Source: Roseovarius albus | GTDB lineage: Bacteria > Pseudomonadota > Alphaproteobacteria > Rhodobacterales > Rhodobacteraceae | Length of the DNA stretch: 64,000 bases | Assembly (NCBI RefSeq): GCF_900172335.1 | Contig: NZ_FWFX01000006.1 | Coordinates: forward strand, 1 to 64,000 | Direction of reading: 5' to 3' | Shown: one piece after another, positions 7,639-55,172 of the stretch | Numbering within the stretch: the stretch's first letter is position 1 | How the letters are laid out: each line of letters begins with the position of its first letter | Made by a program: the position numbers and the translations under genes | Notes under the pieces: model-generated | The model's database searches: none | Told to the model about the DNA's origin: nothing | The model's input: only the letters and a program-made list of their open reading frames with translations

Positions 7639-7660
7639 ACCTTCTCCTATAGAAGCAGAT

Positions 7661-7689
7661 AAAGGGGTGCCCTAAGGGCGCCCCTTTTT
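7661..7689 (+). terminator. Terminator after lon
   Basis: Arms AAAGGGGTGCCC (7661-7672) and GGGCGCCCCTTT (7676-7687), with one G-T pair, a 3-base loop and a T-run. It lies 22 bases beyond the lon stop. Confidence 0.85.
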
Positions 7690-7813
7690 GTAAAACTCGC
7701 CGCCAGCTTGGGCTTGAGACGCTCTTAGCGATCCGCTACGAGTATCGAGCGAAAATCAACGCGCTTCACGAATATGCTGCAATGGCACCCCGAACACTTG
7801 GAACAACTAATTG

Positions 7814-8389: not shown

Positions 8390-8401
8390 CCCCTTCGGGG
8401 G
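8390..8401 (+). other. Short UUCG-tetraloop hairpin between the paired phosphatase genes
   Basis: CCCC-TTCG-GGGG directly after the stop of the first phosphatase gene forms a four-pair stem closed by the extra-stable C(UUCG)G loop. No T-run follows, so it is more likely to affect mRNA stability or translation of the second gene than to terminate. Confidence 0.4.
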
Positions 8402-8422
8402 CAGGATCGAAGTGGATCTACC

Positions 8423-9007: not shown

Positions 9008-9085
9008 GGGATTTTTACTTTTCCACCATTTTCGATGCAAAGAGGGCTTGCGTCCGTCCTCGGCCTTGGCTATGACGCGCCTCAC

Positions 9086-9161
<76 letters not shown>

Positions 9162-9265
9162 TTTCCTCTCAATACGGCGCCGAAAATTTATGCAACTTCT
9201 ACAAGTTGTACGTGGGTTTTGTTCAAAACTGCATTGCGCTATCAGAGCTAAAAATTTTCGGAACT

Positions 9266-9940
9266 CTAAAAATCGAAACTGGTTTGCTGCGGCGCCCAGG
9301 GTTCAGTCATTTCTGGGCCTTCGCTGGACTTTGTGATCGGGGCGACGGGGGTGACCTCAAATCGTCCCTCCCAATCGGTGCCGAGGGTGTCCTGCGCTTC
9401 GTTTGAGGGGGTGGTGTAGGTGAGCCAGTCATTGATTTCTGCAGGGGACAGGATCACCGGCATACGGCTGTGGATGTGTTCGATTTCCGGGGCCGGGTTG
9501 CGGGTGAGGATGGAGCATTGCAAACCGTCCCCAGATGTTCGGTAGAAACCGGCAAAAAAGATCAGGGGGGCGTTGCGGTTGACCGAGATGAAATAGGGTT
9601 GTTTACGACCAGACAGACCGCTCCATTCATAATATCCCAAGGCGGGGATGATACAGCGGCCATTGTCCCAATAATCGCGCCAGAAATGGGTATTGGAGAT
9701 TTTGGAATTGATCAGTGGGGATTTTGCCCGTGGGTCGTTGATTTGCCAGCGGGCGGTGGTCAGTTGAAACCCGTCGTCATCCCAGCGGATCATATGGGCC
9801 TGATCCGAGGGGGAGATGTTGTAGCCCCGTTTGGCCTCTGGCGTATTCGGATCGGCGCGCGCAGGTGTGTAGAGAAACCCTGAGAGGATTTCCAACATCT
9901 GATCTTGGGTGAGATCCCCGGCTGCAAATTTTCCGCACAT
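9266..9940 (-). CDS. SRAP-domain protein (YedK/HMCES family)
   Basis: A 224-residue protein of the SOS-response-associated peptidase family, which forms a covalent crosslink to abasic sites in single-stranded DNA through the N-terminal cysteine. All active residues are visible: Cys2 after the initiator Met, the Asn in LINSKISN (Asn78), Glu105 in GYYEWSG and His157 in HIHSRMPVIL. Length equals that of E. coli YedK. Single gene. I saw no convincing LexA box in the short look at its upstream region. Confidence in the family is high. Confidence 0.93.
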   Translation of the reverse strand: MCGKFAAGDLTQDQMLEILSGFLYTPARADPNTPEAKRGYNISPSDQAHMIRWDDDGFQLTTARWQINDPRAKSPLINSKISNTHFWRDYWDNGRCIIPALGYYEWSGLSGRKQPYFISVNRNAPLIFFAGFYRTSGDGLQCSILTRNPAPEIEHIHSRMPVILSPAEINDWLTYTTPSNEAQDTLGTDWEGRFEVTPVAPITKSSEGPEMTEPWAPQQTSFDF

Positions 9941-38229: not shown

Positions 38230-39699
38230 CTAGTTGGACAGGCCCAAGCAGACGTATTTCAGCTCCAGATAATCATCCATGCCGTATTTGGAGCCTTCAC
38301 GCCCCAGACCGGACTGTTTGACACCACCAAAGGGGGCAACCTCGGTTGAAATCAGGCCGGTGTTGACGCCGATCATGCCGGTTTCCATGCGTTCGGCGAC
38401 GCGCCAGACACGGGAAAGATCGTTGGCATAAAAGTAGCCTGCGAGACCAAATTCGCTGTCATTGGCCAGTGCGATGACCTCTTCCTCGGTCTCGAACTTG
38501 ATCAGCGGTGCGATGGGGCCAAAAGTTTCTTCTTTTGACACCAGTGCTGAGGTTGGAACATCGGTCAACAGGGTGGGTTCAAAGAAGGTTCCACCCAGTC
38601 GTTTGCCGCCCACAAGAACACGCGCGCCTTTGGCGGTTGCGTCGGCGAGGTGTTCCTCGACCTTGGCGACCGCACCCTCGTTGATCAGCGGGCCGGTTGT
38701 GACGCCTTCGTCCATGCCGTTGCCGGGGGTCAGTTTGGCGATGGCGGCGGCGAGCTTTTCCGAAAACGCCTCGTAAACGCCGGACTGCACGTAGATCCGG
38801 TTGGCACAGACGCAGGTCTGGCCATTGTTGCGGAACTTGGCGATCATTGCGCCTTCGACGGCAGCATCAAGATCGGCATCATCGAAAACGATGAATGGCG
38901 CGTTGCCGCCCAGTTCCAGTGACATCTTCTTGATGGTATCGGCCCCTTGACGCATCAGGATCTGGCCCACACGGGTGGAACCGGTGAATGTGATTTTAGC
39001 CACCTTTGGGTTGGCGCACATTTCTTCGCCCGTGCCGCGCGAATTGCTGTTGGGCAGCACGCTGAAGACACCAGCAGGCACGCCAGCGCGTTCGGCCAGA
39101 ACAGCCATGGCGATGGCAGACAGCGGAGTGAGTTCCGCCGGGCGCACTACGAAGCTGCAACCAGCCGCGAGGGCCGGGGCCACCTTGCGGGCGATCATTG
39201 CGTTGGGGAAGTTCCATGGCGTGATGGCGCCAACAACACCGACGGGCTGTTTCAGCACGACGATGCGCTTGTCGCGCTGGTGGCCCGGGATGGTGTCGCC
39301 GTAGACACGCTTGGCCTCTTCGGCGAACCACTCGATGAAGGATGCACCATAGGCGATCTCACCCTTGGCCTCGGCCAGAGGCTTGCCCATCTCGGCACAG
39401 AGGATGGTGCCCAGATCGTCTTGTGCTTCGATCATCAGGTCGAACCACTTGCGTAGAACTGCGGCGCGTTCCTTGCCGGTCCACTCCGCCCAGTCTTTTT
39501 GCGCGACATAAGCGGCATCAATCGCCTCTTGTACGTCGGCAATGGTGCTGTCGGTAACTTGGGTGATGACAGCACCCGTTGCTGGGTTGGTGACAGCAAA
39601 ACGGCTGTCTCTGCTGCGCCATTCGCCGTTGATATAGGCCCGGCTCTCTAACAGGGTTGGGTCGTTCAGGTTCAGGGTGTTTGCGTTTGTATCCAGCAT
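38230..39699 (-). CDS. gabD: NAD(P)-dependent succinate-semialdehyde dehydrogenase
   Basis: 489 residues of the aldehyde dehydrogenase fold, oxidising succinate semialdehyde to succinate. It has the SSADH-like N-terminus, GAITPWNFPNAMIARKVAPALAAG, FTGSTRVGQILM, the general base Glu in LELGGNAPFIVFD, the nucleophile in NNGQTCVCANRIYV, and KEETFGPIAPL. Both paired cysteines of GabD enzymes (CVC) are present. It starts one base after the gabT stop, so gabT-gabD are one unit. Confidence 0.93.
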   Translation of the reverse strand: MLDTNANTLNLNDPTLLESRAYINGEWRSRDSRFAVTNPATGAVITQVTDSTIADVQEAIDAAYVAQKDWAEWTGKERAAVLRKWFDLMIEAQDDLGTILCAEMGKPLAEAKGEIAYGASFIEWFAEEAKRVYGDTIPGHQRDKRIVVLKQPVGVVGAITPWNFPNAMIARKVAPALAAGCSFVVRPAELTPLSAIAMAVLAERAGVPAGVFSVLPNSNSRGTGEEMCANPKVAKITFTGSTRVGQILMRQGADTIKKMSLELGGNAPFIVFDDADLDAAVEGAMIAKFRNNGQTCVCANRIYVQSGVYEAFSEKLAAAIAKLTPGNGMDEGVTTGPLINEGAVAKVEEHLADATAKGARVLVGGKRLGGTFFEPTLLTDVPTSALVSKEETFGPIAPLIKFETEEEVIALANDSEFGLAGYFYANDLSRVWRVAERMETGMIGVNTGLISTEVAPFGGVKQSGLGREGSKYGMDDYLELKYVCLGLSN

Positions 39700-39700
39700 C

Positions 39701-40978
39701 TTAGGCGGCCTTTGCGGCTTTGATCGACTCTTCGAGCAGATCCATGGCTTCGGTCATGACTTCATCCTGAATGGTGATAGGTGCAAGGAAACGCACAACG
39801 TTGCCATGCACGCCGCAGGTCAGCAGAACCAGATTGCGCTTCAGACCTTCGGCGCGGACTTTGTTGGCAAAATCGGCACTTGGGACGCTGCCATCGGCGG
39901 TGTTGAACTCTGCGGCAATCATGAAACCGGGGCCGCGTACGTCCACCATCTCTGGCACATCTGCGCGGATGGCCTCCAGACGCTGCTTCAGTCGTGAACC
40001 CAGCTCATTCGCGCGGTCGCAAAGCTGTTCCTCTTCGATCACGTCCATAACTGCATGCGCGGCGGCGATACCCAGTGGGTTCCCGGCATAGGTGCCACCC
40101 AGACCGCCAGGGTTGGCAGCGTCCATCAGGTCGGCGCGGCCAGTGACAGCGGCGAGGGGCAGACCACCTGCCAGACCTTTAGCCATAGTAGTCAAGTCAG
40201 CGGCAACATCGTAATGCTCCATCGCGAACAGCTTGCCGGTGCGGGCGAAACCGGTTTGGACCTCATCCGCGATCATGACCATGCCGTACTCGTCACAGAT
40301 TTCGCGTACGGCACGCATTAACTCAACTGGCGCTTGGTAGAACCCGCCTTCGCCCTGAACAGGTTCCAGAATGATGGCGGCAACGCGGTCGGGATCGAGA
40401 GCTGCTTTAAAGAGTTGAGTGATCGCGGCTTTGGCATGATCAATGGTGATGCCGTGCAGATCGTTGGGGAAGGGGACGTGGAAGACGTCAGGCATCATGG
40501 TCCCGAAACCCGCCTTATAAGGCTGAACCTTGCCAGTCAGCGACATGCCCATAAATGTGCGGCCATGGAAGCCTCCGCCAAAGGCGATCACGGCCTGACG
40601 ACCGGTTGCGGCGCGGGCGACCTTGATGGCGTTTTCGACGGCTTCGGCACCGGTGGTGACAAAGATGGTTTTCTTGTCGAAGTTACCGGGCACGGCTTCG
40701 TTCAGGCGCTCGCCAAGACCAATGTAGTTTTCGTACGGCATGACCTGATGGCAGGTGTGCGTGAAGCTACCCAGCTGCTTTTCAACAGCGGCCATCACCT
40801 TAGGATGGCGGTGGCCGGTGTTTACAACAGCGATGCCAGCGGCAAAGTCGATGTAACGGTTGCCCTCGACATCCCAGACCTCGGCGTTCTCTGCGCGCTC
40901 TACATAGATCTGTGTCATCATGCCAACGCCACGGGCGATGGTCTCGTCACGGCGCTTTGCGATCTCAGCGTTTTTCAT
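39701..40978 (-). CDS. gabT: 4-aminobutyrate aminotransferase
   Basis: 425 residues of class III PLP aminotransferases, converting GABA and 2-oxoglutarate to succinate semialdehyde and glutamate. It has [60 protein letters not shown] and the PLP lysine K267 in [12 protein letters not shown], the position of the E. coli GabT lysine. The ATG at 40978 is fixed by GGAGGA six bases upstream; a longer frame exists but has no signal. Transcribed towards gabD and divergent from the regulator gene, with the shared operator 55 bases upstream. Confidence 0.95.
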
Positions 40979-41032: not shown

Positions 41033-41051
41033 ACACTATGGTGCATTGTGT
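41033..41051. promoter_or_regulatory. Operator copy 1 of a shared inverted repeat (gabT / regulator)
   Basis: ACACTATG-GTG-CATTGTGT: arms 41033-41040 and 41044-41051, one arm mismatch, spacer 3. It lies between divergent gabT and the XRE-cupin gene, 55 bases from gabT and 62 from the regulator start. The same repeat occurs twice before the C45 and VOC genes. Confidence 0.7.
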
Positions 41052-41113
41052 ATAATGCAATCCCCTTTTAAGGTATGGCTTAACGTATTGTATTTGTTAA
41101 ATGAGGTGGTTAA

Positions 41114-41698
41114 TTGTTCAATATAATGAACACTGATAACACAACGAATACGAATCTCGAGATTGGCGCGCGTCTGCGTTACCTGAGAGAGCGGGCAGGC
41201 ATGTCACAGCGCGCCTTGGCCAAGGCGGTGGGCGTGCCCAATTCGACCGTATCCTTGATCGAGTCGGGTCAGACCAACCCATCTGTCAGCGCGCTCAAAC
41301 GCTTGCTGGATGGCATACCCATTGGTTTGTCAGAGTTTTTTGCCTTTGAGCCTGAACCAGAGCGCAAGGTGTTTTTTGCCGCTGAGGAGTTGACTGAAAT
41401 CAGCCGGGGTCGGTTGTCATTGAGGCAAGTGGGGGGCAATTTGTTTGGTCACAACCTGCAGATCTTGCACGAAACCTACCAACCTGGGGCTGATACGGGC
41501 GTGAAAAAGTACCAACACGAAGGGGAAGAGGGCGGGATCGTCATTTCCGGCCGGATCGAGGTCATCGTGGGTGAGGAGCGCAAGATCCTTGGCCCCGGTG
41601 ATGCCTATCTGTTCAATAGCAACATGCCGCACCGGTTCAAGGCGATTGGGGCGGATGCGTGCGAGATCATCAGCGCCTGCACGCCGCCGACGTTTTGA
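41114..41698 (+). CDS. XRE-cupin transcriptional regulator (PuuR type)
   Basis: 194 residues. A lambda-repressor-like helix-turn-helix (about 17-70, RLRYLRERAGMSQRALAKAVGVPNSTVSLIESG) is followed by a cupin domain (about 110-190) with the DTGVKKYQHEGEEGGIVISG and GPGDAYLFNSNMPHRF boxes. This is the layout of PuuR, which represses putrescine/GABA genes. GAGGTGG (41103-41109) lies four or five bases before a TTG at 41114. The ATG at 41126 is 16 bases from it, so the TTG is the better start. It most likely binds the repeat at 41033 and controls itself and gabTD. Confidence 0.9.
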   Translation: MFNIMNTDNTTNTNLEIGARLRYLRERAGMSQRALAKAVGVPNSTVSLIESGQTNPSVSALKRLLDGIPIGLSEFFAFEPEPERKVFFAAEELTEISRGRLSLRQVGGNLFGHNLQILHETYQPGADTGVKKYQHEGEEGGIVISGRIEVIVGEERKILGPGDAYLFNSNMPHRFKAIGADACEIISACTPPTF

Positions 41699-41888
41699 CG
41701 GTGTGGGTGTTACAAGCATAATGTCTGCAACGCGGACAAAGCAGCCAAAGTAAAAACTATTTAATTTCTGACTTACGGCAACCACAGCATGTTCGCTTTG
41801 TGCAAGCAACAGACATTGCGAGTACTTTCCGCGCTATAGCTTTCGCAACAGCGTCGAGATAGGGTTTGACGTCAATGAGGAGGAACGC

Positions 41889-43610
41889 ATGGAGCGAAAA
41901 CTGGCTGCGATAATGGCCGCGGATGTCGTTGGCTATTCCCGGATGATGGGCGCGGATGAGGTTGGCACCCTTGGCAATCTGAAGGCCTTTGAAAAGGATG
42001 TTATTGAACCTGTCGTTTCGAAACATTCCGGGCGCATATTCAAACGCATGGGAGACGGTTATCTTGCAGAATTTCAGAGCATCGTTGCGGCGGTGGAATG
42101 CGCGATGGAATGGCAGTTTGCCGCAAGCGAAGAATTACAGTTTCGCATAGGTGTCCATCTTGGGGACGTGATTGACGAAGACGGGGATGTCTACGGCGAG
42201 GGGGTAAACATAGCCGCGCGTATCGAGCCGCTGGCCGAAGCCGGTGGGATATGCCTTTCTGAAGATGCATGGCGCCAGGTCAGAACGAAGCTGGACGTCG
42301 ATTTTCAGGATTTAAAAGAACAGAAATTAAAAAACATTGATAACCCAGTTCGCGTGCTTCAAATTGCAAATCCTAGTCGCGATAGTGTTTCGTTTCAGGC
42401 CGCATCCAATGCGAAAGAAGAAGACTATCCATACCGCAAATTACCAAAAATTGTTCTGGCCCCCTTTAAGTGCATTGGGGACAGCAGCGAAGGTCAGGCA
42501 TTGCGTTCTGGATTGACTGCAACTTTAACCACAGCGCTGGCAAAGTTTGAAGAATTTGCCCTGGTTGATCCGGGCACATTGTCTGAAATTTCTGCAAGCC
42601 ACGAAACGCTGGATGCCGGTCACCAAGTCGGCTTTGAATTTGTTCTCAACGGTACAGTTCAAACAGTGGCATCAAGGGTCCGTATTGGTGTAAGCCTGAT
42701 CAGTACTGTTTCAGGTCAACCGGTTTGGTCGGAAACGCTGAACCGGGAACTCGAAGACGTTTTTGAGCTGCAGGATGATATTACGGCCTTTATCGCTTCA
42801 ACCCTGAGCGATGCCGTTGGGGAGGAACAGGCCAAGGCAATCTCTGACACCCCCTTGAACAAGCTTACCGCAGCGGAGGTGATGATCCGAGGGATAGAAC
42901 TCCTTCACAATGTTAATTTTGAAGATAACAAAACGGCGATGGGAATATTTGAAAATGCGCGGGATGCTGACCCTGATGCACTATTCCCAACACTGTGTCT
43001 TTGTTGGACCTATGCCATCGAGCTGGGCAGCGGTTGGCCATCATCACGAGAAGATCCGATTGGCTTTTGTCTCGATGAAATGAGGCGCCTGACACGTCTT
43101 CATCCACGCTCCGCCCATATTCATCGCCTTACAAGTCGCCTTTACTATTTCAAAGGCAACTATGCCGATGGCCTCGCCCACGCCAAGCGTGCCTATGAGC
43201 TAAATCCTTTTCATAGCGACATGATGATTACTCTGGGCACAGCACTTATGTGGGAAGGTCGCCCGAAAGAAGCGCTTGTTTTGCTTGAAAAGGCCTATCA
43301 GACAAACTCGTATATTCCAGACGCTTTCAGATCATATTTGTCACTTGCGTATTTTCTTTGTGATCGACCCCAGGATGGGATTCCAATCCTGGGTGTCAGT
43401 GAAGTCCTGACCCCAACATCGCAAGTGTACAGAATTCTCCTCTTGGTGGGTCTGGGACAAATTGCAGAGGCGAAACGGCACGCAAAAGCGCTGAAGATGC
43501 GTCATCCTGATTTTGAGTCCGCCAATATTCAGATGTTTAACTCATTCCGCTACGAAGAAGACCGGAACAGGATTTTCAGTGCATTGCGCAGCGTCAGTCT
43601 TGTTGAATAA
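41889..43610 (+). CDS. Class III adenylate/guanylate cyclase with FlgO/TolB-like and TPR regions
   Basis: 573 residues. The N-terminal cyclase homology domain (about 1-160) has the metal-binding aspartates Asp12 (IMAADVVGYSRMMGAD) and Asp56 (FKRMGDGYLAEF), and FRIGVHLGDVIDEDGDVYGEGVNIAARIE. A middle domain (about 180-310) resembles the TolB N-terminal or FlgO-type fold with VLAPFKCIGDSSEGQALRSGL. The C-terminal half is TPR-like (YYFKGNYADGLAHAKRAYELNPF). This layout is common in alphaproteobacteria, often with many copies per genome. Strong GAGGAGG before the ATG. Whether it is linked to the GABA block is unknown. Confidence 0.9.
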   Translation: MERKLAAIMAADVVGYSRMMGADEVGTLGNLKAFEKDVIEPVVSKHSGRIFKRMGDGYLAEFQSIVAAVECAMEWQFAASEELQFRIGVHLGDVIDEDGDVYGEGVNIAARIEPLAEAGGICLSEDAWRQVRTKLDVDFQDLKEQKLKNIDNPVRVLQIANPSRDSVSFQAASNAKEEDYPYRKLPKIVLAPFKCIGDSSEGQALRSGLTATLTTALAKFEEFALVDPGTLSEISASHETLDAGHQVGFEFVLNGTVQTVASRVRIGVSLISTVSGQPVWSETLNRELEDVFELQDDITAFIASTLSDAVGEEQAKAISDTPLNKLTAAEVMIRGIELLHNVNFEDNKTAMGIFENARDADPDALFPTLCLCWTYAIELGSGWPSSREDPIGFCLDEMRRLTRLHPRSAHIHRLTSRLYYFKGNYADGLAHAKRAYELNPFHSDMMITLGTALMWEGRPKEALVLLEKAYQTNSYIPDAFRSYLSLAYFLCDRPQDGIPILGVSEVLTPTSQVYRILLLVGLGQIAEAKRHAKALKMRHPDFESANIQMFNSFRYEEDRNRIFSALRSVSLVE

Positions 43611-43780
43611 CCGTTTCTAGTCATAAAGTGAATGTTCACCACACGATAGCTTGACCAAAATTCGAACAGATACAAAGGGCCAATTTGGGCTCTAAGCCGT
43701 CATTGATGTGTCAAGCTTCAATCGACTTCCGGGTCTTTGGCGACCCGAAAGCACCACCTATTGCACTTTCAGGTCGACAG

Positions 43781-44647
43781 TTAACCACGCACCGGGCGCT
43801 TCGCTTTTTCCAGTGGACCGAGTGAGTTCAGATACTCGGTCTGGTGGCTGCCATTGTTGTAGATCGGGAAGGTCATGTCTGTGTCGCGGAAGCTTTTGAG
43901 CGGCTGGCCCATATTCAACAGACCTTGCTGTCTCTGACGGCGGACCAGATCAAAGTCGACCTCGATGGGGATCAGTTCCTCGTTGACCGAGCCGTCATGT
44001 AGTAACTGTCCGGCGGGGTCGATAACACGGGAATAGCCATTGCCGCCGGCCATCAAACCGTTGATCGCAAAGACGTAGGATTGAAACATCGCGGCCGACG
44101 CCTGTGCGATGACCAGATCGGCGTGGCGGTCGACAAAGCTGGCCAGAACCGGGTTGATGATCACCTCGGCCCCTTGCGACACCATGGTGCGGGTCAGTTC
44201 TGGGAACCAGATGTCATAGCAGATCGACATGCCGAATTTGCCGACGTGTGGGACATCAAAAGTACAGACCTCGGTGCCCGGGGTGGTGTGGGTCTCGTAG
44301 GGTGTGAAGGGGAACATCTTGCGGTAGCGTGTGACAATCTCGCCCGCCGGGTTGATGACGGGAGAGGTGTTGTAGATCACGCCGTCAACCTCGCCCTTTT
44401 CATAATACGAGCCGGGGATCAGCCATATGCCATATTTCTGTGCCAATTCACGGCATTGGGTTTCGTATTCGCCATCTCGCGGTTGTGCCGATTGCGGGCT
44501 GGGGCCGGAATGACAAAGCTCGCTGAACACCACCATTTCAACCCAGGGATAGAGATGCATCATGATCGCCAGACGTTTTTTCATTTCCGGCATGTTGTCA
44601 TGCACCCCAAGGTGCATCTGAATTCCACCAATGGCGAATTTTGTCAT
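43781..44647 (-). CDS. Carbon-nitrogen hydrolase (nitrilase superfamily amidase)
   Basis: 288 residues. The Glu-Lys-Cys triad is visible as Glu43 (VVFSELCHSG), Lys110 (TRYRKMFPF) and Cys143 (MSICYDIWFPE). The family splits linear or cyclic amides, N-carbamoyl compounds or nitriles; the sequence does not name the substrate. It lies 26 bases after a C45-type acyl hydrolase on the same strand. Both are probably expressed from the promoter covered by the repeat at 45747. Working together they could release an amine from an acylated or amidated compound. Confidence 0.88.
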   Translation of the reverse strand: MTKFAIGGIQMHLGVHDNMPEMKKRLAIMMHLYPWVEMVVFSELCHSGPSPQSAQPRDGEYETQCRELAQKYGIWLIPGSYYEKGEVDGVIYNTSPVINPAGEIVTRYRKMFPFTPYETHTTPGTEVCTFDVPHVGKFGMSICYDIWFPELTRTMVSQGAEVIINPVLASFVDRHADLVIAQASAAMFQSYVFAINGLMAGGNGYSRVIDPAGQLLHDGSVNEELIPIEVDFDLVRRQRQQGLLNMGQPLKSFRDTDMTFPIYNNGSHQTEYLNSLGPLEKAKRPVRG

Positions 44648-44673
44648 GGCTTGATCCTTTGTGAATGTAGGGC

Positions 44674-45720
44674 TTACAGCAAATGGGACCCTTGGGCGTC
44701 AAACCGCAGGGGGATACGGTTTGTCGGCCAGTCATTGACTGACCAATGCCCGGCAGAGCCATTGCTGAAAATGAGTTCCAAACTGGAAGAGGCGGGGCGG
44801 TAGAGGCTGGTGAACACGGTGCCAAACCCCTGATCATAGTTGGTGGCGAAGACCGGAGCGCTTAAGAAACGATGTTTGAGTTGCTCGGCGGTCGGAGGCG
44901 TGGGCGCAGAAAGAGTGGCCTGCAAAATCTCGGCTCGCTCCATGGTGGCGGAAAACCGACCGTGGCCCATCAATTCAACCCCGATCTGATGATTTGTGGC
45001 CCAGTTCTGATGTTTGATCATTGGCGGGCGGTCAGGGGCGAGAAACACCGTAATGGTATCACCCGCGCGATCCGTCAGCGTCACATTATAGGACATGTGG
45101 CAGGGGATCCGGCGCAGAACTTCGATGGCATCCTGAACATCTGTGCAGATTTCAAGAATGTAGCGGATGATGAGCGGAATGCCGAACCCGATGCCCACTT
45201 TCAGGCGACCGCCAAAACTGAGCGAAATGGCAAGACCGTTTTCGTTGATCCCGTCTGACAGGCCACTCAACCCATCGACCATGCCGATCACACGTTTGCC
45301 ACGCCAGTTGGTACGCAGCAGGGTTAGCTCGTTCAGGGCCGGATCCAGATCGTAATTGCGGATCAGGAAAGGGCCTTGGTGGTCGTTTGAGACCGCTTGC
45401 GAACAGTTAGTCAGATACCGGGGCGGGCACCAGAAGGTCAGGAAGCTGCGTAGGGCGGCGTCATTTGGGTCAACGTCAGCAAGCCTATCAATCAGGCGCT
45501 CAATTTCCGGCATATGGCGCCGAATCGCGCGTTGTCCGTCTTCGGCACTGGCGTTGGAGCCACCTTTGCGCTCGAACCATTTTTTCCATGCGGGCCAGAA
45601 TCGGTGATGGATCTCACCCCACGCCCCTGCAGGGAAGTCTTCGGACAGCAAAGTCAGCTGCCGATGCATGGCAAACTGGGCGTTTTGGCCGTCTTTTTCT
45701 ATGTCCTGTAGGGTGGTCAT
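44674..45720 (-). CDS. C45-type (acyl-CoA:6-APA acyltransferase-like) N-terminal nucleophile hydrolase
   Basis: 348 residues from the ATG at 45720 (AGGA six bases before). The family matures by self-cleavage before a cysteine; Cys106 in LTNCSQAV is the candidate nucleophile, followed by the conserved FLIRNYDLDP segment and the GLSDGINENGLAISLSFGG patch. Members split or make N-acyl bonds. The 105-residue pro-region is within the usual range. First gene of a pair with the nitrilase-type gene; its promoter region carries the operator at 45747-45765. Confidence 0.85.
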   Translation of the reverse strand: MTTLQDIEKDGQNAQFAMHRQLTLLSEDFPAGAWGEIHHRFWPAWKKWFERKGGSNASAEDGQRAIRRHMPEIERLIDRLADVDPNDAALRSFLTFWCPPRYLTNCSQAVSNDHQGPFLIRNYDLDPALNELTLLRTNWRGKRVIGMVDGLSGLSDGINENGLAISLSFGGRLKVGIGFGIPLIIRYILEICTDVQDAIEVLRRIPCHMSYNVTLTDRAGDTITVFLAPDRPPMIKHQNWATNHQIGVELMGHGRFSATMERAEILQATLSAPTPPTAEQLKHRFLSAPVFATNYDQGFGTVFTSLYRPASSSLELIFSNGSAGHWSVNDWPTNRIPLRFDAQGSHLL

Positions 45721-45746
45721 AACTGTCCTTTGGGCCGTAGTGCCGC

Positions 45747-45765
45747 ACACTATGATGCATAGTGT
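45747..45765. promoter_or_regulatory. Operator copy 2 of the shared inverted repeat (C45 gene)
   Basis: ACACTATG-ATG-CATAGTGT with perfect arms 45747-45754 and 45758-45765, 27 bases before the C45 gene ATG. It matches the gabT site at all but two of 19 positions. In minus-strand sense it follows a TTGCAA box, so a bound protein would cover the likely promoter. Confidence 0.75.
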
Positions 45766-45788
45766 TGCATTTGCAATCAAAAAAAACT

Positions 45789-45807
45789 ACACCATGGTAC
45801 ATAATGT
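45789..45807. promoter_or_regulatory. Operator copy 3, weaker (C45 / VOC spacer)
   Basis: ACACCATG-GTA-CATAATGT, the same layout with two arm mismatches. Its start is 42 bases from that of copy 2, near four helical turns, so two dimers could bind on one DNA face and repress both divergent genes. Confidence 0.55.
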
Positions 45808-45871: not shown

Positions 45872-46360
45872 ATGAAAAAACCTGGAATTCGCCCCCGTGG
45901 CTATACAACGATTACCGCTTCTGTTGCCGTAGATGACGTCACGGCAACTCTTGAATTTCTGAGCGCAGCCTTTGGAGCCGAGGTTCAGATGCAGGACGAT
46001 TCAGAAGCGCCAAGCTTTGCATCTGTAAAAATCGGTAATGCGATGTTGTTTGTCACCCGTGGTTGGACGGCGCATGGCCACATGCCACAATCTTATACAG
46101 CGTCGAGTGCGGTTTCCCTGCACCTCTATGTGGATGATGTTGCCGCCATGACCGAACAGGCGGTTGCTGCAGGCGCGACCCTGTTGTCCGAGCCGACCGA
46201 AACTTATTGGGGTGAGACCACAGCGGCGCTGGCTGACCCATTTGGCCAGATTTGGACCGTGGCAGAGCGTGTTGAGGCCCTGACCGGTGATGCGATCGCC
46301 GAGCGTCGCGCTGTCGCCCTGAATGTGGAAGAGGTGGTTGACGCGCAACCTCAGGCGTGA
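45872..46360 (+). CDS. VOC (glyoxalase-fold) family protein, PhnB-like
   Basis: 162 residues with a duplicated beta-alpha-beta-beta-beta fold. YTTITASVAVDDVTATLEFLSAAFGAEV opens the first module, and SLHLYVDDVAAMTEQAVAAGATLL and ALADPFGQIWTVAERVE form the second. It resembles the PhnB-like subgroup. Metal ligands cannot be assigned with certainty and the substrate is unknown. Divergent from the C45 gene across the two operator copies, so it is probably in the same regulon. Confidence 0.85.
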   Translation: MKKPGIRPRGYTTITASVAVDDVTATLEFLSAAFGAEVQMQDDSEAPSFASVKIGNAMLFVTRGWTAHGHMPQSYTASSAVSLHLYVDDVAAMTEQAVAAGATLLSEPTETYWGETTAALADPFGQIWTVAERVEALTGDAIAERRAVALNVEEVVDAQPQA

Positions 46361-46400: not shown

Positions 46401-46754
46401 ATGAACGCTGATCCAGCACCAACTAGCACAATCCGGCAGGGTGACCTGCCGGGTTTGATGTTGGAAGACCGAATTGCAGATTATCCTGTTGCCGTGCGTA
46501 CAGTGCGCGAAGTGGCCGGTGGGGGCTTTGCCAACAATGACCGCTATCCCAACACCTGGACGGTTTATTTCTTGGTGGATGGGCAGTGGGCGTTGGTTGA
46601 ATCCGCGCGTGGGTTGCGACGCGAGTGGTCCAGTCTGGACCGCTTGGAAAAATGGCTGCTCTCGTTCGGCTTCCGGTTTTTCTGGGTGCGCAACGATATT
46701 GATCCGGTTGCGCCAGCGGGTGATGGCCCGATGGGTGGCCCAAATATGAAATAA
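46401..46754 (+). CDS. Small conserved-looking protein of unknown function
   Basis: 117 residues, soluble, no signal peptide. The centre is rich in aromatic residues (NDRYPNTWTVYFLVDGQWALVESA, then LEKWLLSFGFRFFWVRND), and the end is Gly/Pro-rich. No family recognised. It lies 40 bases after the VOC gene and is closed by a strong terminator, so it is the last gene of the VOC unit and probably part of the operator-linked regulon. Confidence 0.7.
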   Translation: MNADPAPTSTIRQGDLPGLMLEDRIADYPVAVRTVREVAGGGFANNDRYPNTWTVYFLVDGQWALVESARGLRREWSSLDRLEKWLLSFGFRFFWVRNDIDPVAPAGDGPMGGPNMK

Positions 46755-46799: not shown

Positions 46800-48275
46800 T
46801 CAGAACCATTTTCCTGCAGACAGATCGTCCGGTACTGCCGCCGCTTGTTGTGGCATTAGCGGGATGGATTTGAACTGCGCTTTGATCCCGGCATTCCAGA
46901 GCTTGGCGCGCTTGGTCAGATTGCGCTTGTCGGTTTGCATGCGGCCACGGGTGAGCAGGCAGCCCAGATCGGCCCCGTGATAGCAGTAATCACCCGTGCT
47001 GTAGACCCGCAGATAAAACGCTTCGGTCTCTTGCCCCAAAGAGGTGATGTTGAGCGCCGAGCGTGCAAAATGCACATCACCATTGTCATCAAGCCGCCAG
47101 ATGCCGGACTGAGGTGCCTTGGTGATTAGTTCAACCTTGTCTTCGGTCTGCTTCAACACCAGCTGGGTCCAGTTGTCATATTCGGTCCAGCGCGCCTGAA
47201 TTTCATCGACGTTGATGTCGTAATCGACGTCCAGATATTCCAGCAGGTGGAACAGGAAGAGTGGGCATCCGCCGTATGTTGAGGTGATCAGATTGGTCGG
47301 TGGTGTCACACCGCTGACGCGCGGGTTCAGCTCACCCAGATAAACCTCGTTGGTGTCGGTATCGAGCAGGAAGTCTAGACAGAACACACCCTTGTAGCCC
47401 TCTTTGTACAGGCGGTCGCCAAAGTTGCGAACCATCTCTTGCACTTGTTCGGCCACACCATCAGGCAACAGTTGTGGGGACACGTCATTGCCACACCAGC
47501 CGCCCTTGTAGGGGGTAACCTCGGCAAATCCGGTGATGTCGGTCATGACCGGGCCAACAAGCGTGCCGTGCCGTGTGGCACAACCTTCGACCGCTCCAGG
47601 CAGGTGATTGAGATACTTCATCACCTTGATCTGTTGATCGATGATCTTGCCAGAATGCTTGTCCCAGTCTTTGCGCGACTTGATGAAGAAGGTCGTGCGC
47701 CCACTGTCGCCGTAAGGGGTTTGCACCACGAGGTTGGAGCCAAGTTTGGCGCTGTCTGCCAATTCAATCAGCTCTTCGTAAGTATCGGCGTGACCCAGTA
47801 CGTTCGGGGCAGAGGCGACACCCGCCTCATTGCCCAGCTGGGTGGTGACAATCTTACTGTCCAAATGCTCACGCAGGGCTGCTGGGGCTAAAGCCACACT
47901 CAGACCAGCCTTGGCACATAGTTGCTCGGTTTGTTCGTTGAACATGACAAAGATTGCCAATCCACCTTTGCGGGATTGGGTGCGCTCCAGAAATTCGGGG
48001 TGAGAGACCAGATAGTTGGCCACGTCTTCCATTGATTGAAAATCATCATGTGGCATCTTGGTTGGAACAAAAGATCGATCGTGATTGCCGTCAAAAATGT
48101 CAAAGTAGTTAATGTATTCCAATCCACCGACCCATTGGTCGAGGCCCAAGAGGCTATAGGGGGTGGGGGTGACCACATAAATGGGGGTCTCATTTTTACG
48201 CAGAAACTGGAATATCTCGGAAAGGGATTTCAATTTCTTGCGGCTGCCACCCCGTTTGGACTTCTTTTTTGTCAT
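46800..48275 (-). CDS. ATP-grasp protein, biotin-carboxylase-like, unknown substrate
   Basis: 491 residues from the ATG at 48275 (AGGAGA six bases upstream). A lysine-rich start (KKKSKRGGSRKK) precedes a pre-ATP-grasp domain. The ATP-grasp fold follows (about 130-345), with SNLVVQTPYGDSGRTTFFI and the metal-binding end VYLGELNPRVSGVTPPTNL. About 140 C-terminal residues are unlike biotin carboxylase, and no biotin-carrier domain or gene is nearby. It may ligate a carboxylate to an amine. Single gene between the amide block and the PpiC-HupE pair. Confidence 0.8.
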   Translation of the reverse strand: MTKKKSKRGGSRKKLKSLSEIFQFLRKNETPIYVVTPTPYSLLGLDQWVGGLEYINYFDIFDGNHDRSFVPTKMPHDDFQSMEDVANYLVSHPEFLERTQSRKGGLAIFVMFNEQTEQLCAKAGLSVALAPAALREHLDSKIVTTQLGNEAGVASAPNVLGHADTYEELIELADSAKLGSNLVVQTPYGDSGRTTFFIKSRKDWDKHSGKIIDQQIKVMKYLNHLPGAVEGCATRHGTLVGPVMTDITGFAEVTPYKGGWCGNDVSPQLLPDGVAEQVQEMVRNFGDRLYKEGYKGVFCLDFLLDTDTNEVYLGELNPRVSGVTPPTNLITSTYGGCPLFLFHLLEYLDVDYDINVDEIQARWTEYDNWTQLVLKQTEDKVELITKAPQSGIWRLDDNGDVHFARSALNITSLGQETEAFYLRVYSTGDYCYHGADLGCLLTRGRMQTDKRNLTKRAKLWNAGIKAQFKSIPLMPQQAAAVPDDLSAGKWF

Positions 48276-51250: not shown

Positions 51251-52747
51251 ATGCGGCGCAAAAGACAATCTGGCAAGACGCTCCAAAGAGTGCAGGCAGC
51301 AGCCAAGCCACCCCTTGGTGGGCGATTCATGCCGCTTGGCGACGGGGACGTGCTGCGCATTATAGATGCCGGATTTGATATTCTGGAACGGATCGGTGTC
51401 GCCAATGTGCCCGAAGACTTGCGCGAGATTGCGCTGGAAAACGGTGCTGTGGTACGTGCCGATGGCAGGGTGACCTTTCCGCGTTCAGTGGTTGAGGATT
51501 GCTGTGCAAAGGCTTGCAAACGCGTAGAATTACCGGGATTTTCAGTTGAACGCGGGATCGAGGTTGGTGGAGGTCGGGTGCACATCGGCACTGGCGGTGC
51601 GGCGGTACAGATGTTGGAGGCCGAGACCGGGGAGTTTCGCGACAGCACCTTGACGGACCTCTTTGAATTGATGCGCGTGGTCGATGCCTGTGACAGTATT
51701 CACTATTCACTCCGCCCCGTTGTGGCGCGGGATATGACCGACCCGTTGACGCTGGATATCAACACCGCCTTTGCAGCAATGAAGGCAACATCAAAACCCA
51801 TCGGTACCAGTTTCTTTGAACCCGAGAATGTGGCCCCGATTGTTGAGATGTTCGATGCGGCTTTGGGCGGAGAAGGCGCATTTCGCAAACAACCGTTCTG
51901 TTTTGCCTCGGTGTGTCATGTGGTGCCTCCGCTTACCATGGCAGAAGAAGCCTGCGGGGTGATGCAAGAGGCAGTGCGATTGGGTATGCCGTTGCAGATC
52001 TGTTCGGCAGCGCAGGCGGGGGCGACAAGCCCGGCTTCGCTCGCCGGTGCGCTGGCGCAGGGTTTGGCAGAGTCTTTGGCTGGGCTTGTGCTAGTCAACA
52101 TGATGCAGCCCGGTTTTCCGAGCATATTGGCGTTTTTGCCGTTCATCTCTGACTTGCGTACGGGGGCGATGACTGGCGGCTCAGGTGAGGCTGCAGTGGC
52201 CAATGCTGCCGCAGCGCAGTTGTTGCTGCATTTGGGATTACCATCCACCGTATCGGCGGGGATGACGGACGCCAAAACCGCCGATACTCAGGCGGGATAT
52301 GAGAAGGGCTATACCATTGCTTTGGCCGCGCAGGCCGGGGCCGACATGATCAACTTATCGGTTGGCATGTTGGGCTCGATCATGGCGGCCAGCAAAGAGG
52401 CGTTGGTGATCGACGATGATATGTGCGGTGCGATCCTGCGCTCGGTGCGCGGCGTGGAGCTGTTCGATGGGGCGATTGATCTGGATATGATCGAGCAGGT
52501 CGTGACGGGCGAGGGGCATTTCCTCGGCACTGCGCAGACGCTGGACCTGATGACCAAGGAATACATCTATCCATCGCTTGGTGACCGTCAGAGCGTGAAT
52601 GATTGGATCGAAAGCGGCAGTCATACGATCTGGGACCGGGCCGTCGAACGTGTGGCCGAGATTGAGTCCCAACCTGCGCCATCCCATCTTCCCAAAGACA
52701 TCGAGGTCGCGATCCGCGCGCGCCTGCCAATTCACCTGAAAGCTTAA
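51251..52747 (+). CDS. Non-pyrrolysine MttB-family methyltransferase (glycine-betaine/quaternary amine type)
   Basis: 498 residues of the trimethylamine methyltransferase family: ILERIGVANVPEDLREIALENG, GGRVHIGTGGAAVQMLE, RPVVARDMTDPLTLDINTAFAAMKAT, TMAEEACGVMQEAV and SVGMLGSIMAASKEALVIDDDM. The reading frame contains no internal TAG, so it is the pyrrolysine-free group, whose studied members demethylate glycine betaine or related quaternary amines with a corrinoid protein. No corrinoid protein gene lies in the window. AAGGGG before the ATG. First gene of an operon with two FAD/GcvT dehydrogenases (spacings 4 and 3 bases). Confidence 0.9.
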   Translation: MRRKRQSGKTLQRVQAAAKPPLGGRFMPLGDGDVLRIIDAGFDILERIGVANVPEDLREIALENGAVVRADGRVTFPRSVVEDCCAKACKRVELPGFSVERGIEVGGGRVHIGTGGAAVQMLEAETGEFRDSTLTDLFELMRVVDACDSIHYSLRPVVARDMTDPLTLDINTAFAAMKATSKPIGTSFFEPENVAPIVEMFDAALGGEGAFRKQPFCFASVCHVVPPLTMAEEACGVMQEAVRLGMPLQICSAAQAGATSPASLAGALAQGLAESLAGLVLVNMMQPGFPSILAFLPFISDLRTGAMTGGSGEAAVANAAAAQLLLHLGLPSTVSAGMTDAKTADTQAGYEKGYTIALAAQAGADMINLSVGMLGSIMAASKEALVIDDDMCGAILRSVRGVELFDGAIDLDMIEQVVTGEGHFLGTAQTLDLMTKEYIYPSLGDRQSVNDWIESGSHTIWDRAVERVAEIESQPAPSHLPKDIEVAIRARLPIHLKA

Positions 52748-52751
52748 TAAC

Positions 52752-55169
52752 ATGAAGACACAGGCCAAAGTTGTCATCATCGGCGGGGGCGCGGTTGGCG
52801 TCTCAACACTCTACCATCTGGCCAAGGCCGGGGTAACGGATACGCTGTTGATCGAAAAGAACGAGCTGACCAGCGGATCGACCTGGCATGCGGCGGGTAA
52901 CATACCGACCTATGCCAACAGCTGGGCCGGGATGCGGGCAGGCAATTATGCCTGGCGGCTGTACAAGGATCTGGCTGATGAGGTGGATTATCCGATCACC
53001 TATCGCCACACCGGGGCATTTTGGCCCGCGCATACGCAGGAACGCATGGATTTCTTTCGCCATTTGGTGGGAATTTCCAAAGGGTTGGGCTATGATATGG
53101 CGATGCTTAGCCCGTCTGAGATGGATGCGATGCACCCGTACTTCAGTTCTGGGGAGAGCATCATCGGCGGGGTCTACGATCCCTATGAGGGGGACCTCGA
53201 CCCCAGCCAATTGACACAAGCGCTTGCAAAGGGCGCGCGGGATCTGGGGGCGCAGATTGCGCGGTTCACCAAGGTCACCGGGATCAACCGTCGCCCGTCT
53301 GGCGAATGGCAGGTTGACACGGATAAAGGTGATGTTGTTTGTGATATCGTGATTAACGCAGGTGGCTATTATGGTCGTCAGGTGGGCGAATTAGTCGGGC
53401 AAAAACTGCCGGTGGTCACGCTGGAGCATCAATATTTGGTGACACAAAGCCTACCTGAACTGGAAGCAAACCCGGACAATTTCCCACTGATCCGCGATCC
53501 GGACATCATGTATTATCTGCGGCGTGAACGAAACGGTTTGCTCCTAGGTTCTTATGGACACGAAGGGCGCCCTGCGTGGCAGAATGGTATGCCGGAGTGT
53601 TTTGCTAACCAGCTTTACCCAGACAGCGTCGATGACATTGCCGAGGTGTTGGAGGCGGCACTGGCGCATGTGCCGCTGTTGCGCAAGGCGGGGGTCAGCC
53701 GTTTTGTTAACGGCCCGATTCCCTATAGCCCGGATGGTGCACCGCTCTGTGGCCCGGCCTTTGGTCTGCCGAACTTCTTTCATGCCTGTTGTTTCCCGGT
53801 GGGGATCACCCATTCGGCAGCGGCCGCCAAAACGCTCACGGAATGGATCGTCGAAGGTGAGACTGAATGGGACATGTCGATGTGGGACCCGCGCCGGTTT
53901 GGTGAGGAATGGGCGACATTCGGCTATACCGCCACCCGTGCCAGCGAGCTGTATGAAAACCAATACGCCATTCCCCATCCGCATCGGATTTGGAAATCGG
54001 CGCGGCCGGTTCAGTCCACACCACTATATGACCGGCTGAAAGCCAAAGGCGCGGTGTTTGGGCAAGTTGCTGGATGGGAACGGGCCTTTTGGTTTGAGAC
54101 GGACACCGTCAAAAACGATGGCAGGCTGAGCTTTCACCACGAATGCTGGCATGAGGCGGTTAAGGCCGAATGCGAAGGTGTGCGCGATCATGTTGGTGTC
54201 ATGGATCATGGTGGTTTCACCCGATACGAGGTCGAAGGGCCGGGGGCCTACGATTTTCTGAACCATGTATTTTGCGGCGCAATGCCTGCCGTTGGACGGG
54301 TGAAGCTGAGTTATATGCTGACGCCCAAGGGCAAGATTTGGTCAGAGGCAACCATTGCGCGGCTCGCCGACGACAAGTTTCTGCTGTGCGGGCCAACACT
54401 GGCGGATCAGCGCGATTTTGACTGGATGGTGCAGTTTTTGCCGGAGGAGGGCGTGACCCTGCAGCGTGGCTCAGACTTTGATGCGGCCTTGATGGTGATG
54501 GGACCAAAGTCACGCGAGACCCTGCAGCCCTTGACCGAGAATGATCTGTCTAAAGAGGCCGCCCCTTGGATGTCGGTGCGTGAGATCACGATTGCCGGGG
54601 TTCCGGTGATCGCCCTGCGGGTGTCCTATGTCGGCGAGCCGGGCTGGGAATTGCATCTGCGCTCCTCGGATTTGGTCACATCCTATGACGCGATCATGGC
54701 GCAAGGCGTGGACAAGGGCATAGTTGAGTTTGGTTCTTATGCGCTCAACGCTATGCGGTTGGAAAAGGGATACCATGGCTGGGGGACGGACTTTGGGAGC
54801 GAATATACTGCCTTTGATGCGGGGTTGGATCGGTTCGTCAGTCGCAAGAAGGACAGTTTTGTCGGGTGCGCAGCGTTTCTGGCGCAAGCCGAGCAGCCAA
54901 AGAGCTATCACTTCACCGCCTTTGTGCTCGAAAGCGATGAGGCGGATGCGCTGCCATCCGATCCAATTTGCCGGGATGGTAAACCAGTCGGCTATGTCAG
55001 TTCGGGCGGGACAGGGTTTCGGATCGGCAATCGCATCGCGTTGGGGTACTTGACCGAAGAAGCGCAGCCCGGGGATTTATATGAGATCGAAGTGCTGGGT
55101 GTGCCGGTGAAAGCAACTGTTTCAACCACACCCTTTTATGACCCGGATAACGAGCGGTTGCGAGGATAA
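52752..55169 (+). CDS. FAD-dependent dimethylglycine/sarcosine dehydrogenase-like protein, first copy
   Basis: 805 residues. The N-terminal DAO-type oxidase domain starts VVIIGGGAVGVSTLYHLAKAG. The SGSTWHAAGN motif holds the His that carries covalent FAD in dimethylglycine dehydrogenase. The C-terminal half (about 420-805) is a GcvT/aminomethyltransferase-like folate domain with YVGEPGWELHLRS and LEKGYHGWGTDFG. This fusion demethylates secondary or tertiary amines and passes formaldehyde to tetrahydrofolate. It probably takes the product of the MttB-like enzyme. The start is four bases after the mttB stop. Confidence 0.93.
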   Translation: MKTQAKVVIIGGGAVGVSTLYHLAKAGVTDTLLIEKNELTSGSTWHAAGNIPTYANSWAGMRAGNYAWRLYKDLADEVDYPITYRHTGAFWPAHTQERMDFFRHLVGISKGLGYDMAMLSPSEMDAMHPYFSSGESIIGGVYDPYEGDLDPSQLTQALAKGARDLGAQIARFTKVTGINRRPSGEWQVDTDKGDVVCDIVINAGGYYGRQVGELVGQKLPVVTLEHQYLVTQSLPELEANPDNFPLIRDPDIMYYLRRERNGLLLGSYGHEGRPAWQNGMPECFANQLYPDSVDDIAEVLEAALAHVPLLRKAGVSRFVNGPIPYSPDGAPLCGPAFGLPNFFHACCFPVGITHSAAAAKTLTEWIVEGETEWDMSMWDPRRFGEEWATFGYTATRASELYENQYAIPHPHRIWKSARPVQSTPLYDRLKAKGAVFGQVAGWERAFWFETDTVKNDGRLSFHHECWHEAVKAECEGVRDHVGVMDHGGFTRYEVEGPGAYDFLNHVFCGAMPAVGRVKLSYMLTPKGKIWSEATIARLADDKFLLCGPTLADQRDFDWMVQFLPEEGVTLQRGSDFDAALMVMGPKSRETLQPLTENDLSKEAAPWMSVREITIAGVPVIALRVSYVGEPGWELHLRSSDLVTSYDAIMAQGVDKGIVEFGSYALNAMRLEKGYHGWGTDFGSEYTAFDAGLDRFVSRKKDSFVGCAAFLAQAEQPKSYHFTAFVLESDEADALPSDPICRDGKPVGYVSSGGTGFRIGNRIALGYLTEEAQPGDLYEIEVLGVPVKATVSTTPFYDPDNERLRG

Positions 55170-55172
55170 CAC

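What the first reader, a model, noticed from the sequence alone, without database searches (positions are those of the whole stretch)
41033..45807. One inverted repeat links gabT and its regulator to a C45 hydrolase/nitrilase pair and a VOC unit
ACACTATG-N3-CATAGTGT occurs between gabT and the XRE-cupin gene (41033-41051), perfectly before the C45 gene (45747-45765) and weaker at 45789-45807. The sites sit at divergent promoters 4.7 kb apart. This predicts a small regulon in which an N-acyl hydrolase and an amidase release GABA or a related amine, and gabT/gabD use it. Copies 2 and 3 start 42 bases apart, near four helical turns, which suits paired dimers.
Basis: partly seen in the sequence, partly recalled or inferred. 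Interest (0 to 1): 0.8.

Follow-up and report, generated by a model that had tools for sequence, protein, structure and literature searches.

The report
Shared DNA switch, unexpected likely regulator
A short mirrored DNA sequence really does tie a GABA-breakdown gene to a nearby amide-hydrolase gene cluster in marine bacteria, but the protein that reads it is probably not the neighbouring regulator first suspected; a small protein of unknown fold made by the same cluster goes with the site instead.

Summary
The three ACACTATG-N3-CATAGTGT sites lie where stated and are the only ones with two or fewer mismatches in the 4.29 Mb genome. They are a conserved DNA operator: ACAYYATG-N3-CATRRTGT stands before the C45 gene (or the first remaining gene of its cluster) in 27 of 34 genomes tabulated, and before gabT in four (window, G045, G405, G522). 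In G405 the two loci are on different contigs, so the regulon link is real.

The proposed regulator is not supported. The PuuR-like XRE-cupin carries another palindrome at its own start (41114-41133), and its presence does not track the site: 8 of 27 site-bearing genomes lack it, among them G522, whose gabT site is intact.

What tracks the site is a 117-aa protein encoded at 46401-46754 (no Pfam family): 27 of 28 genomes with its gene have the site, 0 of 6 without. In G117, G113 and L082 the gene lies elsewhere without a site of its own, and one of its residues goes with a base in the half-site. Best explanation: a small, probably repressed regulon whose factor is, or depends on, this protein. 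Direct binding is unproven, and its fold matches no known DNA-binding protein.

The parts
41033..41051 (.). operator copy 1, ACACTATG-GTG-CATTGTGT, 54 bases before the gabT start codon
   Evidence: same place in G045, G405 and G522
45747..45765 (.). operator copy 2, perfect palindrome, 26 bases before the C45 start codon
   Evidence: conserved before C45 in many genomes
45789..45807 (.). operator copy 3, 42 bases from copy 2, 64 bases before the VOC start codon
   Evidence: 42-base pair also in G045, G405, L062, G522
41114..41133 (.). separate PuuR-like palindrome TTGTTCA-ATATAA-TGAACAC across the XRE-cupin start; likely operator of the XRE-cupin itself (partly inside the coding start, so its conservation is not all regulatory)
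   Evidence: kept in G045 and G405; TTGCTCA-N6-TGAGCAA or near forms at part of the more distant XRE-cupin promoters
46401..46754 (+). ORF117, 117-aa protein without Pfam family; best candidate for the factor that acts at the operator
   Evidence: co-occurrence; alignments; models
44674..45720 (-). C45 family autoproteolytic hydrolase/acyltransferase (NF040521 143.3 bits, cut-off 85)
43781..44647 (-). nitrilase-superfamily amidase (PF00795)
45872..46360 (+). VOC / glyoxalase-fold protein
46800..48275 (-). PRK06524 'biotin carboxylase' protein (ATP-grasp by recall), near-constant cluster member
   Evidence: 719 bits, cut-off 684; present in 19 of 21 C45 loci
39701..40978 (-). gabT, 4-aminobutyrate--2-oxoglutarate transaminase
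   Evidence: NF005692 811 bits, cut-off 724
38230..39699 (-). gabD, succinate-semialdehyde dehydrogenase
   Evidence: TIGR01780 706.7 bits, cut-off 646.35
41126..41698 (+). XRE-cupin (PuuR-like) regulator; in-frame TTG at 41114 is an alternative start
41889..43610 (+). adenylate/guanylate-cyclase-domain TPR protein lying between the two units; no homologue found in the same locus of sister genome G045

Best explanation
ACAYYATG-N3-CATRRTGT is a double-stranded DNA operator for a symmetric (dimer-like) factor. It controls the C45-nitrilase operon and the divergent VOC-ORF117 unit, in some relatives also the TRAP-transporter/PRK06524 promoter, and in part of the window's lineage it has been added to gabT. 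Shown here: the sites, their conservation, the genes they stand before, and their independence from the XRE-cupin. Inferred: the factor is ORF117 itself, or a factor that works only with ORF117, and it most likely represses. A bound protein 26-44 bases before the C45 start codon would cover the core promoter or the start of the transcript, and paired sites 42 or 20-21 bases apart (4 or 2 helical turns) let two dimers sit on one face. A metabolite of the pathway would release it. The XRE-cupin separately controls its own gene, and gabT in relatives, through TTGYTCA-N6-TGARCAA.
For: Sites. Conservation across genera before C45 or the first remaining gene. gabT copy in four genomes, unlinked from C45 in G405 (C10 against C12). 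Arms constant, spacer free, positions 4/16 not covarying (33 sites picked by the motif), so a DNA half-site rather than an RNA stem. ORF117 and site: 27 of 28 against 0 of 6 (rows). Genomes of L064, L065 and L069 (no site) were searched after the idea was formed and had no ORF117, while weak-site L082 had it. ORF117 found in 7 of 394 family genomes, all among the 10 with this C45 clade. In G117, G113 and L082 ORF117 is away from the cluster and has no site within the 16 kb fetched around it. Residue 44 of ORF117 is Ala where half-sites contain TATG and Gly where they are CATG (11 and 11 genes; five new genomes agree). In G117 the C45 protein groups with the CATG clade, but its ORF117 and its sites are of the TATG kind.
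Against: ORF117 has no recognised DNA-binding domain, its predicted fold has no PDB match below E 0.08, and its net charge is near zero. In most loci the site lies in ORF117's own divergent promoter, so much of the co-occurrence is linkage. On the C45 tree only 3 joint changes are well supported (5 in the best tree; sign test p 0.25). The residue-44 split may be one or two events, and five other columns split the same way. A conventional regulator elsewhere in the genome was not searched for. G503 has ORF117 and only a 3-mismatch site.
Confidence: 0.5

Rival explanations
1. The operator is read by an unidentified conventional regulator (for example a GntR, TetR or MarR type) encoded elsewhere; ORF117 is a pathway protein or effector-maker that is only needed in the variant of the pathway which this regulator controls.
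For: Symmetric 8-bp half-sites 11 bp apart are typical of ordinary dimeric regulators (recalled). ORF117 has no DNA-binding domain. Among gene families recurring near the cluster the XRE-cupin is the only one I recognised as a regulator (several families seen in 3-5 loci were not annotated), so a distant regulator would be needed if neither is it.
Against: It would have to be gained and lost together with ORF117; in G117, G113 and L082 ORF117 itself has no site nearby, so it is not simply a target. In the genomes looked at, the matches outside the cluster and gabT nearly all lie inside ORFs, and none was seen at a recognisable regulator gene (genes judged from ORF layout, not annotated).
Confidence: 0.38
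2. One reading: the XRE-cupin protein binds the operator and coordinates gabT with the C45/nitrilase unit in response to GABA.
For: It is the only recognised regulator family that recurs near the cluster or gabT (9 of 26 loci) and it sits next to site 1. The alternative palindrome at its own gene is found at up to 2 mismatches in only part of the family: 8 of the 13 loci have it at the XRE-cupin gene, and 5 of 16 (three of these 5 repeat loci).
Against: 8 of 27 site-bearing genomes lack an orthologue and 5 of 7 genomes without a scored site have one (Fisher p 1.0). In G522 gabT keeps the site without any XRE-cupin at E 1e-20. Upstream of the XRE-cupin in other relatives the site is absent in 16 of 16 loci (14 of them with a gabT of 53% identity or more alongside) and in 6 of 6 (one of these, G518, is also). 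In L064, which has no such site, three TTGYTCA-type sites stand at the TRAP/PRK06524 promoter instead.
Confidence: 0.06
3. The repeat acts as an RNA hairpin in the leader (8-bp stem, 3-base loop).
For: It lies 26 bases before the C45 start and is an inverted repeat; positions 5 and 15 do change together in most sites (25 of 33 Watson-Crick, 4 G-U), though this follows the TATG/CATG clades.
Against: 15 of 264 arm pairs are mismatched and 18 are G-U; positions 4 and 16 vary independently; each of the four gabT copies carries at least one broken pair (read from the sequences); no terminator-like site was found around either site group.
Confidence: 0.02

Closest known systems
PuuR / XRE-cupin regulators of putrescine and GABA use
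   Same: The window's XRE-cupin has the HTH_3 plus cupin layout and its best NCBIfam hit is PuuR; it lies beside gabT with its own palindrome resembling the E. coli PuuR site (that site is recalled; two searches found no paper with it).
   Different: It scores 128.7 bits against the PuuR cut-off of 211, and its presence does not go with the ACACTATG operator.
GabR / OapR (MocR-type) regulons of GABA use
   Same: Small regulons joining a GABA transaminase and dehydrogenase with transport or side-pathway genes (passages of PMC5320631 seen).
   Different: In the 12 passages shown from that paper no C45/nitrilase regulon is described, and no MocR gene is among the 20 window genes scanned; the operator was not compared with the MocR motifs.
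Divergent local repressor with shared operator (general scheme, recalled)
   Same: Small gene transcribed away from the operon with one or two palindromes between, helical phasing of paired sites, tiny regulon.
   Different: The small gene's product has no helix-turn-helix or other known DNA-binding domain.
phrog_4595 and small uncharacterised phage proteins
   Same: ORF117 residues 51-100 match phrog_4595 (E 3.6e-4) and its model matches small phage proteins (best E 4.7e-4, prob 1.00).
   Different: Their function is unknown; no relative was found by sequence in the viral-contig, phage or plasmid collections.

Membership tests
PuuR (XRE-cupin regulator at 41126-41698) | N-terminal HTH_3 and C-terminal Cupin_2 domain | tested here: met
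PuuR (XRE-cupin regulator at 41126-41698) | score above the NCBIfam PuuR equivalog cut-off | tested here: not met
   128.7 bits, cut-off 211
PuuR (XRE-cupin regulator at 41126-41698) | own palindromic operator of the TGAAC kind at its promoter (recalled feature) | tested here: inconclusive
   present in the window, G045 and G405 but across the start codon; not seen at the closest other XRE-cupins, L155 and L156
XRE-cupin as reader of ACACTATG-N3-CATAGTGT | gene present wherever the operator is | tested here: not met
   absent in 8 of 27 (one of the 8, G198, is a 78%-complete assembly)
C45 autoproteolytic acyltransferase/hydrolase | score above NF040521 cut-off | tested here: met
   143.3 bits, cut-off 85
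C45 autoproteolytic acyltransferase/hydrolase | conserved N-C pair as presumed cleavage/nucleophile site (recalled) | tested here: met
   N105 and C106 invariant in 6 of 6 sequences; autoproteolysis not testable
4-aminobutyrate transaminase / succinate-semialdehyde dehydrogenase | equivalog or subfamily cut-off | tested here: met
Nitrilase superfamily amidase | Pfam CN_hydrolase above cut-off | tested here: met
   109.3 bits, cut-off 23.2; no NCBIfam equivalog cut-off reached; catalytic residues not checked
MocR/GabR-type GABA regulon | GntR-aminotransferase regulator gene at the locus | tested here: not met
   no such gene among the 20 window genes scanned
ORF117 as transcription regulator | recognised DNA-binding domain | tested here: not met
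ORF117 as transcription regulator | co-occurrence with the operator, also when unlinked | tested here: met
ORF117 as transcription regulator | sequence-specific binding to the operator | not testable with these tools
   needs purified protein

The most novel reading that the evidence does not exclude
ORF117 is the founding member of a new family of small, helix-turn-helix-free, sequence-specific DNA-binding repressors, distantly related to unstudied small phage proteins. Its glycine-rich GGF-A/G loop takes part in telling ACAYTATG from ACAYCATG half-sites, and in one lineage it has captured gabT into its regulon.
Probability: 0.38. Interest if true: 0.68.

Novelty: new variant of a known kind. 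Interest (0 to 1): 0.52.

Why it matters
It defines a compact, conserved regulon with an uncharacterised C45/nitrilase/PRK06524 pathway linked to GABA use in marine Alphaproteobacteria, and separates it from the obvious neighbouring regulator. It also gives a sharp, cheap test of whether an unknown 117-aa protein is a new type of DNA-binding regulator. If so, similar unannotated small proteins in phages and bacteria would become candidates.

Tried and rejected
Matches away from the cluster. In one search, 21 of 394 family genomes held a match (up to 1 mismatch of ACACYATGNNNCATRGTGT); in 6 of them it lay at this cluster. The look-alike sites ACACTATT-N3-CATAGTGT and similar in G456, G459 (two), G403 and G381 stand, in four of these five places, about 90-110 bases from short ORFs that look integrase-like by recall, and have no cluster gene near; dropped. 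The remaining 11 genomes had matches inside predicted ORFs and no cluster gene in the flanks held. Single sites outside the cluster in site-bearing or related genomes (G415 C16, G405 C13, G117 C10, G045 C7:996651, G006, G020) lie inside ORFs, except G415 C16, which lies at an ORF's alternative start beside genes that were not annotated.

Other ideas. RNA hairpin: rejected. Sigma-70-like promoters: none found by the consensus scan around either site group, so promoter placement is inferred from distances only. Solved structures: no match for C45 or the PRK06524 protein; for the ORF117 alignment only chance hits at E 0.38 and above. XRE-cupin as reader: tested by co-occurrence and rejected. Papers: searches returned nothing; some searches gave listings and abstract starts only, none about this cluster; of PMC9951944 and PMC5320631 I saw only the passages. 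That the regulon is unpublished was not established beyond these searches.

Limits of the counts. The table was typed by hand from earlier calls; duplicate genomes were merged on identical sites or places (G518=L071, G523=L077, G405=L063, G415=L068, G117=L072, G198=L075, G416=L079, G107=L081), and G514, whose ORF117 is broken, was counted as having it. The 33 sites were chosen by the motif, so their conservation is partly built in. In one search the L082 ORF117 was read in a wrong frame and its row spoiled that tree; corrected. Of the six expectations tested, two genomes (L079, L081) later proved to be G416 and G107, already covered. The expectation was formed in working and not written in the notebook beforehand.
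Full report
1. The observation. The 19-base pattern matches the window at 41033, 45747 and 45789 with 1, 0 and 2 mismatches; the chance expectation at up to 3 mismatches is 0.10. In the whole genome (4,287,842 bases, 39 contigs) these are the only places with 2 or fewer mismatches; six further places have 3, no more than the reversed control pattern gives, and five of the six lie inside predicted ORFs. Neighbouring genes were named with Pfam and NCBIfam: gabD, gabT, XRE-cupin (best NCBIfam hit PuuR, below its cut-off), a cyclase-TPR protein, a nitrilase-superfamily amidase, a C45 autoproteolytic hydrolase, a VOC protein, a 117-aa protein without family (ORF117) and the PRK06524 protein. The genus is probably Roseovarius as named at NCBI: the genome behind locus L071, Roseovarius sp. 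ZX-A-9, has the same XRE-cupin and ORF117 places (C60:190537-191112, C31:2558-2872) as G518, listed as same genus.

2. The site is conserved and has a small regulon. Pattern searches of 80 relatives and of 394 family genomes (21 genomes with a match, 6 of them at this cluster), inspection of the matches, and a scan for C45 relatives (21 loci) showed the form ACAYYATG-N3-CATRRTGT before C45. Of the 21 loci, 15 have it at up to 2 mismatches within 260 bases of the aligned C45 start and 6 do not; one of those 6, L082, has a one-mismatch copy further upstream. Paired sites start 42 bases apart in the window, G045, G405, L062 and G522 and 20-21 apart in G009, G489 and G117, that is 4 or 2 turns of DNA. 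Some loci carry a further copy at the TRAP/PRK06524 promoter (L066, L067, L070). Where C45 is lost or broken the sites remain before what is left: in G009, where only the start of C45 is fused to the later part of the nitrilase, and in G489.

3. gabT belongs to it in one lineage. The site stands 54-55 bases before the gabT start in the window, G045, G405 and G522. In G405 gabT (contig C10) and C45 (C12) lie on different contigs. In G522 gabT lies directly behind the nitrilase gene. In R. haliotis (L156) and other relatives gabT lacks the site, so this is a feature of part of the lineage.

4. The XRE-cupin is probably not its reader. At 41114-41133 the XRE-cupin start carries TTGTTCA-ATATAA-TGAACAC, close to the recalled E. 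coli PuuR site, and G045 and G405 keep it; part of it is coding. Of more distant XRE-cupins, some carry TTGCTCA-N6-TGAGCAA or near forms (at up to 2 mismatches in 8 of the 13 loci, window, G045 and G405 included, and in 5 of the 16 loci, three of them repeats); others do not, the closest ones L155 and L156 among them, so this second operator is not general. None of the 16 loci has an ACACTATG-type site upstream of the XRE-cupin. In L064, where the cluster has no ACACTATG site, three TTGYTCA-type sites (1-2 mismatches) stand between the TRAP and PRK06524 genes, as if the XRE-cupin had taken over there. Over 34 genomes, orthologues are present in 19 of 27 with the site and in 5 of 7 without a scored site (Fisher p 1.0). 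G522, one contig and 99% complete, has none at E 1e-20 and keeps all three sites.

5. ORF117 is what tracks the site. In the family search ORF117 occurs in 7 of 394 genomes. C45 relatives at E below 1e-100 occur in 10 of 394 (a second, more distant C45 clade fills the rest of its 60 genomes). The 7 are all among the 10, and they are the 7 with the site; G113's copy is one mismatch from the consensus. The other three (G279, G416, G107) have neither. I then expected that the genomes of L064, L065, L069, L079 and L081 (no site) lack ORF117 and that of L082 (weak site) has it: all six came out so, but L079 and L081 proved to be G416 and G107, so three absences and one presence are new. In the genus, 12 of 84 genomes have ORF117 (one broken), namely all 10 with this C45 clade plus G009 and G489, which have lost C45 but keep the sites. 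In all: 27 of 28 with ORF117 have the site at up to 2 mismatches, 0 of 6 without (Fisher p 5e-6, which ignores relatedness). The exception, G503, has a 3-mismatch remnant in the same place. Against this, relatedness leaves 3 well-supported joint changes on the C45 tree, 5 in the best tree, all concordant, too few for a significant sign test, and in most loci the site is part of ORF117's own promoter. The informative cases are G117, G113 and L082, where ORF117 stands elsewhere with no site within the 16 kb fetched, and L070, where it stands upstream without a site of its own while PRK06524 and C45 have one each.

6. A hint of co-evolution. Half-sites come as ACAYTATG or ACAYCATG. ORF117 residue 44 (after GGF) is Ala in the 11 genes whose sites contain at least one TATG half and Gly in the 11 with CATG sites (one of the latter, a paralogue in L074's genome, has 1 of 4 TATG halves). 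Five genomes not used before (G522, G489, G495, G521, G519) agree; G503 (Gly) had no scored site. Five other columns split the sets too, so this may be one or two old events. The telling case is G117: its C45 groups with G179, G279 and L064 (100/98) inside the clade whose other sites are CATG, while its unlinked ORF117 groups with the Ala-44 clade (91/86) and all four of its half-sites are TATG.

7. What ORF117 might be. No Pfam family; weak match to phrog_4595; two AlphaFold models (mean pLDDT 78.7 and 80.8) show strand-helix-strand, then strand-strand-helix-strand. The best viral matches are small uncharacterised phage proteins and there is no PDB match below E 0.08. So nothing in the fold speaks for DNA binding, and nothing excludes it.

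8. Mechanism. The arms are constant and symmetric while the spacer is free, and positions 4 and 16 vary independently; positions 5 and 15 change together, following the TATG/CATG clades. This fits a DNA site for two half-binding units better than an RNA stem. The site 26-44 bases before the C45 start leaves room for little but a ribosome site downstream, so a bound factor there more likely blocks than helps (inference; no consensus promoter was found). I therefore propose a locally acting repressor relieved by a pathway metabolite, with ORF117 as the factor or its essential partner. What the C45 enzyme and the amidase act on is not shown. A gabT relative (57% identity or more) lies in the same fetched stretch in the window, L022, L023, L059, L062, L064, L072, L074, L076, L154 and L189, which suggests that an omega-amino acid such as GABA or a homologue is a product (inference).

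Noticed in passing
window 41889-43610: The cyclase-domain TPR gene between the XRE-cupin and nitrilase genes gave no match in the G045 sister locus, whose other genes compared are 83-99% identical in protein sequence; it looks like an insertion in the window genome or a loss in G045.
   Followed up: partly
L023 (G009) 7916-8924: One open frame joins the start of a C45 protein (by eye) to the later part of the nitrilase (residues 163-284), a deletion remnant, while ORF117 and its pair of operators are intact.
   Followed up: partly
L192 (G514) 6799-7160: ORF117 is broken (a stop, and match segments that do not run through) and the operator beside it has drifted to two mismatches from the consensus.
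   Followed up: partly
L051, L052, L054, L055: A look-alike palindrome (ACACTATT-N3-CATAGTGT and similar) recurs about 90-110 bases before related short integrase-like (by recall) ORFs in four other genera; apparently an unrelated element.
   Followed up: no
L151 (genome of L074) 6497-9916: A second nitrilase / PRK06524 / ORF117 set without C45 lies about 11 kb from the first, with its own weak operator-like palindromes.
   Followed up: partly
window 51251-57566: A trimethylamine-methyltransferase-family gene followed by a gene for a DAO plus GCV_T domain protein and another large ORF not scanned, suggesting use of methylated amines close to the GABA genes.
   Followed up: no
L082 (CP059262.1): A record titled Exiguobacterium profundum MAG carries a C45 cluster close to that of family genome G113, with relatives otherwise in Alphaproteobacteria; the record looks mislabelled.
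   Followed up: no
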